From NCBI GenBank assembly GCA_029059935.1, contig JAIDUZ010000069.1, positions 1-64,000 of the forward strand: a DNA stretch of 64,000 nucleotides. The letters run 5' to 3'. The notes beneath the pieces are model-generated. The model was given only the letters and a program-made list of their open reading frames with translations, had not been told where the DNA came from and ran no database searches. Shown here piece by piece: positions 1 to 11,731 of the stretch. A program made the position numbers and the translations under genes. The stretch comes from Alistipes sp. (GTDB lineage: Bacteria > Bacteroidota > Bacteroidia > Bacteroidales > Rikenellaceae). Numbering within the stretch: position 1 is the stretch's first letter; each line of letters opens with the position of its first letter.

Positions 1-34
1 TCCGCACGCATCGTGGAGGTGGCGGGAGTCGAAC
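1..34. repeat. Direct repeat, outer copy of tmRNA 3' end (att-like)
   Basis: This is a 34-bp exact match to positions 149-182, which cover the 3' end of the tmRNA gene (T-arm and acceptor strand) plus 13 bp beyond it. It may extend left of the window. Integrases often use the 3' end of ssrA as attachment site and leave such a duplicated end. The rest of any element would lie left of position 1, so this is inference. Confidence 0.6.
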
Positions 35-148
35 GTGGCGAAGCCATCCTCACCGAGGAAGCGCCGCAGTTGTCCGCAGAGCGGTCGGTGCGGGGTTTCG
101 CGACCGAGGTAACCCGCGTCCCGAAAACATTCCGGAGAACCGGAACGC

Positions 149-182
149 TCCGCACGCATCGTGGAGGTGGCGGGAGTCGAAC
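149..182. repeat. Direct repeat, inner copy inside tmRNA 3' end (att-like)
   Basis: This is the partner of the repeat at 1-34. It is 34 bp with no mismatch and includes the TTCGA-type T-loop bases and the last bases of the tmRNA gene. The 114 bp between the two copies hold no convincing gene. Confidence 0.6.
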
Positions 183-562
183 CCGCGTCCAAACAGGGAA
201 CCCGAAAGCTTTCTACACGCTTAGTCGCCGTTTCGTCCTTCTACCCGAGCCTGGCAGGCGACAGCCGAACCCGGGTCCCAGTTCCTTGATTTTCGCACGT
301 CGGTCGGAACACCCCGGCGCACTATCTCCGAATCGATGATACCCCGTATGGAAAAGGATTAGGGAGCGGAACCCTCTTCCGGGATACTCGTCGCTGCGGC
401 TCCTTGGCCGCGGCGATTAAGCCAATTTTCCTTGAAAATTAGGCAGCGAGTGCATAGCTGTTATTGCCATTTGTAGTTCGAGCGTCGATATTTACGAGCT
501 GCCGCACAGCGCTCGGCGTGCTTACAATCAAACTCTGCCTGCTGTCAAAACCGGGCACCCCC
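162..562 (-). ncRNA. ssrA: tmRNA (ssrA), one-piece
   Basis: Transfer-messenger RNA rescues stalled ribosomes and tags the stalled peptide for proteolysis. On the minus strand the gene starts with GGGGGTGCC near 562. It ends with a tRNA-like T-arm (GGGTTCGACTCCC) and the acceptor strand CACCTCC plus discriminator A at 162. The first and last seven bases pair, with one G-U. CCA is not encoded. An internal frame at 439-468 encodes a tag ending GNNSYALAA before TAA, close to the GETNYALAA and GENNYALAA tags known from Bacteroidetes. The resume codon (GGC) is inferred from that likeness. The 3' end is duplicated at 1-34. Confidence 0.93.
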
Positions 563-1714: not shown

Positions 1715-3679
<1,965 letters not shown>

Positions 3680-3751: not shown

Positions 3752-4381
3752 ATGAAAGTTACGGTAATCGGAGTCGCCGGAGGAACCGGTTCGGGAAAAT
3801 CGACGCTCGTCAAGCGGCTGCAGGAAGCTTTCCAGGGTGACGACGTGGTGACGCTCTGCCACGACTACTACTACAAGGCCCATCCGGAACTCTCCTACGA
3901 AGAGCGCACGAAGCTCAACTACGACCATCCCCAGGCGTTCGATACGCAAATGCTTGTCGAACATATCAAGGCGTTGAAAGAGAACGTGCCTATCGAACAT
4001 CCGGTCTATTCGTTCGTCGACCATGACCGTCTGCCCGAGACCGTAAGCGTGAAACCGTCGAAAGTCATCATCGTCGACGGCATTCTGATATTCGAAAACA
4101 AGGAGTTGCGCGAATTGATGGACATCAAGGTTTACGTCGACACCGACGCCGACCTGCGCCTGGCCCGCCGTATCCTGCGCGACGTCTGCGACCGCGGCCG
4201 CACCATGCAGTCGGTCATTTCGCAGTACACTTCGACCGTGAAGCCCATGCACGAAGAGTTCGTCGAGCCCTCGAAGAAGTATGCCGACGTCATCATCCCC
4301 GAAGGCGGATTCAATTCCGTGGCCGTAGCCATGCTGATTCAGAACATCCGCTCGCTTATCGAACGGGAGCAGAACGGCTGA
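3752..4381 (+). CDS. udk: Uridine kinase
   Basis: This enzyme phosphorylates uridine and cytidine to UMP and CMP in pyrimidine salvage. The 209-residue protein has the P-loop GGTGSGKST near residue 10. It also has the family blocks HDYYYK, NYDHPQAFD and VDGILIF, and the later RRILRDVCDRGR segment, all typical of the Udk P-loop kinase family. It follows gyrB after a terminator and is closed by the long inverted repeat at 4393-4440, so it is probably a single-gene transcript. Confidence 0.94.
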   Translation: MKVTVIGVAGGTGSGKSTLVKRLQEAFQGDDVVTLCHDYYYKAHPELSYEERTKLNYDHPQAFDTQMLVEHIKALKENVPIEHPVYSFVDHDRLPETVSVKPSKVIIVDGILIFENKELRELMDIKVYVDTDADLRLARRILRDVCDRGRTMQSVISQYTSTVKPMHEEFVEPSKKYADVIIPEGGFNSVAVAMLIQNIRSLIEREQNG

Positions 4382-9714: not shown

Positions 9715-11731
9715 ATGAAAAAACTATTTCTTTTAACCGCACTGTTCGTCGCGGCAGTGTTCCCGTCGTGCAGCAAGCACGACGGCGTCGAAACGCCCGA
9801 CCCTCAGCCGCTCGCCATCGCATTCGCCGAGGGCAATTCGTTGCAGTTCGATGCCGGCGAGACCAAGACCGTCCACTACACCATTACGGGCGGCAGCGGC
9901 AACACCGTGGTAAAAGCCGAGATGCAAACTTCTGACGACGCCTATGCAGTGGAAACGACACCTGCTTCGGCAACCGAAGGGACGATTACGATTACAGCCA
10001 AAACGCCGGAGACCGAGAATAGTGTCGTCGTCACCGTGTCGGACGGCTCGCAGACCGTTACGGCCGAAATCGCCGTGTCGGCAAAGCCCATTCCCGAAGA
10101 ACTTGCCATTGCATTCGCCGAGGGCAACGAACTCTTCTTTGGCGTCGACGAGACCAAGACCGTCCACTACACCATCACGGGCGGCAGCGACAAAACCGTC
10201 GTGACGGCCGAGATGCAAACCCCCGACGATGCCTATACCGTAGAAACGACACCCGCTTCGGCAACGGAGGGAACAATTGCGATTACGGTCCAAAAGCCAA
10301 CCTATAATTGCGTAATCGTCACCGTATCGGACAGCGACCGGTCGATTACGGCATCGATAGACGTTACGGTATTTAAATGGCAAAACCGTTGCAGTAGAGA
10401 CTCCGGGCACGTTGTCGCAGCTGCTGGCGGACTATGATAAAACTACCATTACCGAACTGACCGTTATCGGCAATCTGAACGATAAGGATATTGCGACGCT
10501 GAAAAATCTTCCCAACCTTGCCGTTCTCGATATGGAGCATGTGAATTTGGAGGAGTTGCCGTGGATAGCATTCCAATACAAAACATCGTTGACCTCCGTC
10601 AAGCTGCCGCTGACACTGAAAACAATCGGGACCTACGCATTCTACCAGTGCACCGGTCTGACAAGCATCACGATTCCCGACAGCGTGACGTCGATCGAGG
10701 ACAGCGCATTCTGCGGTTGCAGCGGCCTGACAAGCATAACGATTCCCGACGGCGTGACGGAGATTGGGTTCTGCACATTCTACCTGTGCACCGGTCTGAC
10801 AAGCGTAACGATTGGTAACGGTGTGACGTCGATCGGGGAGGAAGCATTTTACAATTGCAACAAACTAACAAGCATAACGATTCCCGACGGTGTCACGTCA
10901 ATCGGGAACCACGCATTCATCGGTTGCAGCAGCCTGACAAGCATCACAATTCCCGACAGCGTGACGTCGATTGGGGAGGGGGCATTCTGCGGTTGCAGCC
11001 CGTCAAGCATAACGATTCCCGACAGCGTGACGTCAATCGAGGCGTACACATTCCGCTATTGCAGCAGTCTGACAAGCATTACGATTCCCGACGGTGTCAC
11101 GTCGATTGGGGACTTCGCATTCAGCGACTGCAGTGGCCTGACAAGCGTAACAATTGGCAACAGCGTGACGTCGATTGGGGAGGGGGCATTCTCCTATTGC
11201 AGCGATCTGACCAGCATAACGATTCCCGACAGCGTGACGTCAATCGAGGCGTACACATTCCGCTATTGCAGCAGTCTGAGGGCCTTTTACGGAAGATTCG
11301 CTTCATCGGACAATCGATATTTGATAATCGACGGTGAATTAGTTGCTTTTGCTTCGGCAGGCTTAACTTCCCATACGATTCCCGACAGCGTGACGTCAAT
11401 CGGGAACCACGCATTCTTCGGTTGCAGCGGCCTGACAAGCATCACGATTCCCGACAGCGTGACGTCAATCGGGAACTACGCATTCTCCGGTTGCAGCGGC
11501 CTGACAAGCATTACGATTCCCGACGGCGTGACGTCAATCGGGGGTGGCGCATTCTACAATTGCTACAAACTGACAAGCATCTATTGCAAGGCAATCGCCC
11601 CACCGAGTATCACAGCCGGTGTTTTTTATAGTTATAACGCAACGTTATATGTTCCGACAGGCAGCAAGGCGGCTTACGCTGCGGCTGCCGGATGGGAAAA
11701 TTTTAGAACAATCGAAGAAACCCAATTTTAA
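9715..11731 (+). pseudogene. BspA-like LRR surface lipoprotein, frameshifted (locus A)
   Basis: The first part (from ATG 9715) encodes a lipoprotein signal with lipobox VFPSC and two Ig-like/BACON-type repeats (YTITGGS...TVTAEIAVSA). The second part, in the +1 frame (open from about 10380, usually called from 10412), encodes a linker and about a dozen BspA-type leucine-rich repeats (LTSITIPDSVTSIGNHAF), ending in a cap (LYVPTGSKAAY). Compared with the intact paralogue at 53273-55015, about 14 nt are missing near 10372-10383. NGKTVAVETPGTLSQLL then reads on in the shifted frame. The ATG is preferred to an upstream TTG because the lipoprotein signal starts there. The distal part might still be made from an internal start. 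The nuclease-like gene follows 12 bp later. Confidence 0.8.
10650..11590 (+). repeat. 69-bp coding repeats (BspA-type LRR)
   Basis: Tandem units of about 69 bp (23 codons) encode LTSITIPDxVTSIGxxAFxxC. DNA identity between units is high (ATTCCCGACAGCGTGACGTC recurs), so unequal recombination or slippage can change repeat number. One unit is shortened near 11000 and one is replaced by a longer insert near 11281-11365. Confidence 0.85.

What the first reader, a model, noticed from the sequence alone, without database searches (positions are those of the whole stretch)
1..182. Duplicated tmRNA 3' end, a candidate attachment site
A 34-bp exact direct repeat (1-34 and 149-182) covers the T-arm and acceptor end of ssrA. 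Integrases commonly target this site. The 114 bp between copies are non-coding, which could be the scar of a lost element, or the outer copy may bound an element lying left of the window.
Basis: partly seen in the sequence, partly recalled or inferred. Interest (0 to 1): 0.5.

Follow-up and report, generated by a model that had tools for sequence, protein, structure and literature searches.

The report
tRNA-loop-inserted structured repeat beside ssrA
The repeated tail of the bacterium's tmRNA gene marks where a tiny, hairpin-forming repeat has settled, and close relatives of that repeat sit, always the same way round, behind 14 kinds of tRNA and tmRNA genes in the gut bacterium Alistipes, next to a copied piece of that very gene.

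Summary
The 34-bp repeat is real; its left edge is only the contig end. Sister Alistipes genomes, including the cultured A. montrealensis kh20, carry the same arrangement, with no integrase among the neighbouring proteins checked. The 114 bp between the copies is not a scar. It holds one copy of an unlisted structured repeat ("element E", core 50-112) inserted in the T-loop of a duplicated tmRNA 3' end.

E has a covarying 17-bp hairpin with nearly invariant GA/GA and GTC/GG internal loops. It gives no Rfam match and was not detected outside the family Rikenellaceae. In Alistipes 102 of 111 surveyed copies lie within 700 bp of a tRNA/tmRNA gene, all in the same orientation, covering 14 gene types. 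E is commonly followed by a copy of that same gene's T-arm and acceptor end, broken at the T-loop. Often the terminator is duplicated too. In other Rikenellaceae genera E is mostly a dispersed intergenic repeat (up to 33 copies).

Best reading: a non-autonomous, hairpin-type mobile repeat that enters T-loops and duplicates the gene's 3' end, so the gene survives. The enzyme is unknown; no Y1 (IS200-type) transposase was found. The integrase-scar reading is largely replaced, although the duplication does come from an insertion at a classic mobile-element site.

The parts
159..562 (-). ssrA (tmRNA) gene, intact, 3' end facing left
   Evidence: Rfam RF00023 150.5 bits; ARAGORN 161-562, tag GNNSYALAA
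149..182 (-). T-arm/acceptor end of ssrA plus 12 nt of flank: functional copy of the repeat
   Evidence: exact repeat of 1-34
1..34 (-). second copy of the tmRNA 3' end (T-loop to acceptor plus 12 nt), cut at left by the contig end
   Evidence: continues as a ~148-bp unit in G144
35..47 (+). variable second hairpin (hp2) of element E: GTGGC-GAA-GCCAT
   Evidence: sequence inspection; equivalent variable hairpin at other copies
50..112 (+). core hairpin of structured repeat element E (folded strand opposite to ssrA)
   Evidence: covariance model R1 hit, 69.2 bits, E 1.2e-15; minimum-energy fold close to the consensus
111..121 (-). copy of the 5' half of the ssrA T-arm (AACCCGCGTCC, as at 180-190), so E lies in the T-loop of a duplicated T-arm
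   Evidence: sequence; T-arm 5'-half test highest at tmRNA loci
124..147 (-). ssrA terminator-like hairpin (CGTTCCGG-TTCT-CCGGAATGTTTT), part of the duplicated segment in sister genomes
   Evidence: sequence; duplicated on both sides of E in G144, G011. Not flagged by the strict terminator scan

Best explanation
Window 1-182 is an insertion of a small (about 80-nt) structured repeat, element E, in the T-loop of a duplicated ssrA 3' end. E is a family of non-autonomous, hairpin-forming mobile repeats of Rikenellaceae. Shown: (i) a covarying core hairpin, with the folded strand opposite to the tRNA; (ii) fixed position and orientation behind tRNA/tmRNA genes in Alistipes; (iii) a copy of the cognate gene's 3' end from the T-loop to the acceptor on E's far side, often with the terminator; (iv) tandem amplification of the E + 3'-end unit. 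Inferred: E enters the T-loop because the T-arm is a ready hairpin; insertion or its repair duplicates the segment from T-loop past the terminator (70-200 bp), so an intact gene is kept; the 34-bp repeat is that duplication; a recombinase acting in trans, not yet identified, does the work.
For: Sisters G144, G011 (L291 places its unit in the cultured Alistipes montrealensis kh20 contig), G168 and G129 carry the same E-plus-3'-end unit at ssrA. Covariation: 95.5% of cells paired, 11 of 17 pairs changed on both sides, 44 compensatory cells against 12.4 in shuffles and at most 6 in slid controls. In 94 matches (85 distinct) G.U outnumber A.C 41 to 9, so the + strand folds; the outer GA/GA and the GTC/GG loops are about 98-100% conserved. 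Genome-wide model search (not biased to tRNAs): 35 of 180 Alistipes genomes, up to 18 copies. 102 of 111 surveyed copies within 700 bp of a tRNA/tmRNA, median 172 bp, all with the gene's 3' end facing E. Cognate 3' end in the downstream flank: mean score 16.7 against 8.0 for non-cognate genes; 65% exceed the 99th percentile of controls. The duplication runs at least 15 nt past the gene's 3' end in 41 of 67 automatic alignments, and over the whole unit in cases such as L239 (199 of 200) and L213 (202 of 206). Multi-unit arrays: G025 tRNA-Cys, three 248-bp units; G052 84-87-bp spacings.
Against: No clean empty site was aligned to an occupied site, so insertion in one step with a long duplication is inferred. 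In several loci the two terminators differ (L060, L212, L218), the opposite flank of E is an inverted, decayed copy of the 3' end (30% above control), or a far-side copy is short or missing (tRNA-Val loci), so a simple staggered-cut model does not cover every copy. Some of the 41 'extended' duplications start inside unit 0 and partly reflect further array units. No transposase was found. In other genera most E copies are not next to tRNAs, so T-loop preference is a property of Alistipes, not of the whole family. Thermodynamic z-scores for the window copy are weak (-1.3 to -2.2).
Confidence: 0.62

Rival explanations
1. Integrase footprint: the two copies are attL/attR of a phage, ICE or island that integrated at ssrA and was lost, or that lies left of the window.
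For: The T-loop of ssrA/tRNA is a known integrase position (Dehalococcoides ssrA islands insert mid T-loop, PMC3146451); tRNA fragments commonly mark attR (PMC9897764); G152 has a tyrosine integrase beside ssrA.
Against: No integrase among the ORFs checked beside ssrA in E-bearing sisters; no match of 1-182 in phage or plasmid collections; the same insert occurs at 14 gene types with cognate copies.
Confidence: 0.1
2. E is a functional regulatory RNA of tRNA 3' ends (for example an antisense or processing element), kept by selection and spread with tRNA gene duplications; mobility is secondary.
For: Strong covariation and nearly invariant internal loops; fixed orientation in 102 of 102; flanks complementary to each other or to the tRNA in part of the loci.
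Against: Not found in 145 of 180 Alistipes genomes searched; dispersed between protein genes in other genera with up to 33 copies; tandem arrays and nested copies look like proliferation.
Confidence: 0.17
3. E arose or moves by an ordinary REP/MITE route and lands in many places; it survives best behind tRNA terminators, and the tRNA 3'-end copies come from later recombination.
For: E is REP-like in size, palindromic nature and dispersal (PMC3733652); nested copies in G199.
Against: The break lies at the T-loop with the cognate 3' end in most loci; random landing plus selection would not give one orientation and one breakpoint. No Y1 transposase in 42 genomes.
Confidence: 0.1

Closest known systems
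ssrA-specific genomic islands of Dehalococcoides (DsiB serine integrase; PMC3146451)
   Same: Insertion in the T-loop of ssrA; several tandem copies of the ssrA 3' end downstream; gene restored
   Different: Those units are kb-scale islands, many with an integrase module, at ssrA only; here the unit is about 150 bp, gene-less, and occurs at 14 gene types
REP sequences / REPINs with RAYT (Y1) transposases; GTAG and CGTC palindromic repeats (PMC3733652, PMC2817692)
   Same: Short, dispersed, hairpin-forming, intergenic, no coding capacity, sometimes clustered
   Different: No Y1 transposase in 42 genomes; core longer (about 60 nt) with GA/GA and GTC/GG internal loops and a second variable hairpin; tRNA T-loop association with cognate 3'-end copies
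tRNA gene fragments left by integration of mobile elements (PMC9897764)
   Same: Partial tRNA copy carrying T-arm and acceptor end next to an intact gene
   Different: There the fragments bound elements of many kilobases; here the fragment bounds an 80-nt structured repeat
Candidate structured RNAs of human microbiomes (PMC8040213)
   Same: Computationally found structured, partly palindromic elements in Bacteroidetes
   Different: No tRNA-tail-associated Alistipes family was seen in the passages of the main text that were searched; the supplementary list of 3161 models could not be checked here

Membership tests
Integrase-mediated genomic island / prophage at ssrA | Integrase gene at one end of the element | tested here: not met
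   ORFs sampled beside ssrA in G144, G011, G168 and G129 carry no recombinase domain; the window's own left side is unavailable
Integrase-mediated genomic island / prophage at ssrA | Direct repeat of target gene 3' end bounding the element | tested here: met
   34-bp exact repeat
Integrase-mediated genomic island / prophage at ssrA | One target gene (or few) per element type | tested here: not met
   same element at 14 tRNA/tmRNA types
REP / REPIN (RAYT-mobilised) | Short palindromic, dispersed, intergenic, multicopy | tested here: met
REP / REPIN (RAYT-mobilised) | GTAG tag at one end | tested here: not met
   the core ends in nearly invariant GGTAA (usually followed by C), not GTAG
REP / REPIN (RAYT-mobilised) | RAYT / Y1 transposase in the genome | tested here: not met
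   PF01797 absent from 42 genomes incl. the richest in E; control genomes give matches
Known Rfam RNA families | Match to a covariance model | tested here: not met
   no E match at gathering level in the window nor at E<=5 over six loci
MITE | Terminal inverted repeats shared with a full-length transposon | tested here: inconclusive
   flanks of E are often complementary but derived from the local tRNA; no parent transposon seen

The most novel reading that the evidence does not exclude
E is a mobile element whose target is a structure rather than a sequence, the T-loop hairpin of many different tRNA/tmRNA genes. It inserts always in one orientation and copies 70-200 bp of target DNA (gene tail plus terminator), so every hit gene is repaired, using an unknown recombination enzyme.
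Probability: 0.3. Interest if true: 0.85.

Novelty: new variant of a known kind. Interest (0 to 1): 0.6.

Why it matters
tRNA and tmRNA genes are the standard docking sites of bacterial mobile DNA, but each known element docks at one or a few genes through its own integrase. A gene-less 80-nt hairpin found behind 14 gene types, always the same way round and with the cognate gene tail copied, points to target choice by structure and to an unidentified enzyme. It also warns that duplicated tRNA/tmRNA tails are not proof of a lost prophage or island, and it may confuse island-finding programs in Alistipes. Because a cultured strain carries it, mobility and transcription can be tested directly.

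Tried and rejected
Assembly artefact at a contig end: rejected, the same arrangement lies inside long contigs of G144 (504 kb) and G011 (691 kb, isolate genome). Phage origin: the 23-mer repeat hit one viral contig (L033), which is an unrelated ssrA with another tag; an E pattern had no viral hit; BLAST of 1-182 had no phage or plasmid hit. Group I intron in the T-loop: insert too short and no Rfam match. IS200/IS605-type mobilisation: no Y1 transposase. HDV-like or other known ribozyme: no Rfam hit at E<=5. Integron attC: considered from the terminal sequences only, no match to the box consensus by eye; not formally tested. A transposase between inverted E copies in G254 (L174): none recognised among the listed ORFs, by inspection. 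Exact 34-mer scan of genome contigs: no hit.

Full report
Observation. The 34-nt repeat at 1-34 and 149-182 is exact and covers the T-arm and acceptor end of an intact tmRNA gene on the - strand. Window position 1 is position 1 of contig G000:C66 in an incomplete assembly (1.83 Mb, 90 contigs, 85% complete), so the suggested look to the left is impossible and the repeat's left edge is set by the contig end. No third copy exists in the assembly.

Sister genomes. Of 180 genomes of the genus, 152 gave an ssrA match. The closest relative, G144 (95% identical), and G011, G168 and G129 have the same arrangement inside long contigs: ssrA, its terminator, a partial T-arm, an insert, then a second copy of the tmRNA 3' end; in G144, G011 and G168 the copies are 146-149 bp apart. 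G011's contig corresponds in length and unit spacing to Alistipes montrealensis kh20, an isolate genome. G144 and G011 have a second unit, whole or truncated, so the unit is tandemly repeated. G140 and G142 lack it; G012 and G015 keep fragments. Among the ORFs checked beside ssrA in E-bearing sisters there was no recombinase: G011 gave acyltransferase and DUF4842 proteins, G168 a 4Fe-4S protein, G129 a PurT-like ATP-grasp protein, and the G144 ORFs scanned gave no recombinase domain. In G152, which lacks E at ssrA, a genuine tyrosine integrase lies beside ssrA, so ordinary elements do use this site in the genus.

What the insert is. A search with the insert alone found it behind tRNA genes of other types. 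Twenty-one cores were aligned. They share TCACC-GA-GG-GA-GYG-CCGCA-GTC-(variable hairpin)-GG-TGCGG-(5-nt bulge)-CRC-GA-CC-GA-GGTAA, preceded by a second hairpin of variable sequence. The 17-pair structure is supported by compensatory change: 11 pairs with changes on both sides, 44 such cells against 12.4 in shuffles and no more than 6 in slid controls. Among 94 matches G.U pairs outnumber A.C 41 to 9, and the outer GA/GA and the GTC/GG internal loops are almost invariant, so the strand opposite to the tRNA is the one that folds. The minimum-energy fold of window 50-112 agrees with the consensus. No Rfam family matches.

Distribution. The model finds E in 35 of 180 Alistipes genomes, 1-18 copies each (lower bounds, since only the best candidates per genome were scored). 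In the family it occurs in 6 of 22 genera sampled, up to 33 copies. It was not found in 294 other genomes of the order at E<=1e-5. The named hits to an E pattern include many Alistipes and Rikenellaceae records; scattered hits in actinobacteria and others are of the order expected by chance for the pattern (my estimate is a handful; they were not individually checked).

tRNA association. In Alistipes 102 of 111 surveyed copies lie within 700 bp of a tRNA or tmRNA (median 172 bp) and in all 102 the gene's 3' end faces E, which is on the other strand. With about 45 tRNA genes in 2 Mb (assumed) one would expect 2-3% by chance. The far flank of E carries a copy of the cognate gene's 3' end ending at the T-loop: mean score 16.7 against 8.0 for non-cognate controls, 65% above the controls' 99th percentile. 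Gene types: Val, Lys, Ser, tmRNA, Gln, His, Met, Arg, Cys, Gly, Asp, Pro, Leu, Glu. The near flank of E carries either the T-arm 5' half (most tmRNA loci, L060) or an inverted, partly decayed copy of the 3' end (30% above control). So E stands in the loop of a T-arm-like hairpin. In 41 of 67 loci the duplication runs past the gene end, usually through the terminator, and in about a third it comes within 25 nt of E (some of these alignments start inside the unit and reflect array structure). Examples are L239 (199 of 200 identical), L213 (202 of 206), L258, L069 and L170 with three 248-bp units.

Outside Alistipes E is mostly intergenic, between protein genes (G199, G203). Nested copies in G199 suggest insertion of one E into another (my reading). 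In G189 an E splits a duplicated 5' part of a tRNA in its anticodon loop (L180), again a hairpin loop.

Independent events. ssrA-linked E of G061 and G063 resembles E at other tRNAs (up to 0.82) more than the ssrA-linked E of the window's clade, which suggests more than one arrival at ssrA, or exchange between copies.

Mechanism. Shown: structure, position, orientation, cognate duplication, tandem arrays. Inferred: mobility, T-loop entry through a hairpin, duplication of 70-200 bp on insertion, action of an enzyme in trans. The classical candidate, a Y1 (IS200/RAYT) transposase, was found in none of 42 genomes while control genomes gave matches. Several loci do not fit a simple staggered cut (different terminators on the two sides, inverted near flank), so secondary recombination or template switching is likely as well.

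Comparison. T-loop insertion in ssrA with tandem 3'-end copies is known from Dehalococcoides islands (PMC3146451), and tRNA fragments are a usual mark of integration (PMC9897764). Small dispersed palindromes are known as REPs (PMC3733652). Neither class combines a gene-less structured repeat with cognate tail copies at many tRNA types. Literature searches found no description, with the reservation that subscription papers and the supplementary RNA models of PMC8040213 could not be searched.

Verdict.

Noticed in passing
L180 (G189:C56) about 4000-4234: An E copy splits a duplicated 5' portion of a tRNA in its anticodon loop, upstream of what looks like an intact copy: a second hairpin-loop position in a tRNA.
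   Followed up: partly
L163-L165, L172 (G199): A Rikenellaceae genome of another genus with at least 33 E copies between housekeeping genes (ileS, RNase R, frr), several apparently nested in one another.
   Followed up: partly
L183-L192 (G203): Near-identical E copies in one genome whose outer flanks form an extra stem that covaries between copies (CCCCTC/GAGGGG versus CTCCTC/GAGGAG): looks like recent spread.
   Followed up: partly
L046 (G152) 915-2258: A tyrosine integrase gene close to the ssrA 3' end: a genuine integrative element uses ssrA in this genus; its far boundary was not located.
   Followed up: partly
window 10412-11731: Repetitive leucine-rich ORF (TSITIPDSVTSIG repeats), BspA-like in appearance, in an otherwise housekeeping neighbourhood (gyrB, udk, mutS).
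   Followed up: no
L060 (G007:C31) 1823-1929: TPP riboswitch (RF00059, 62.8 bits) a short distance beyond the E-bearing tRNA-Lys.
   Followed up: no
L174 (G254:C22) 3448-3654: 41-bp tandem repeats (TTGCGCAAGCCGCGCAAGTCGCAAATCCTGTGATTCGGTCG) adjoining an E copy, with a second inverted E block 1.5 kb away.
   Followed up: no
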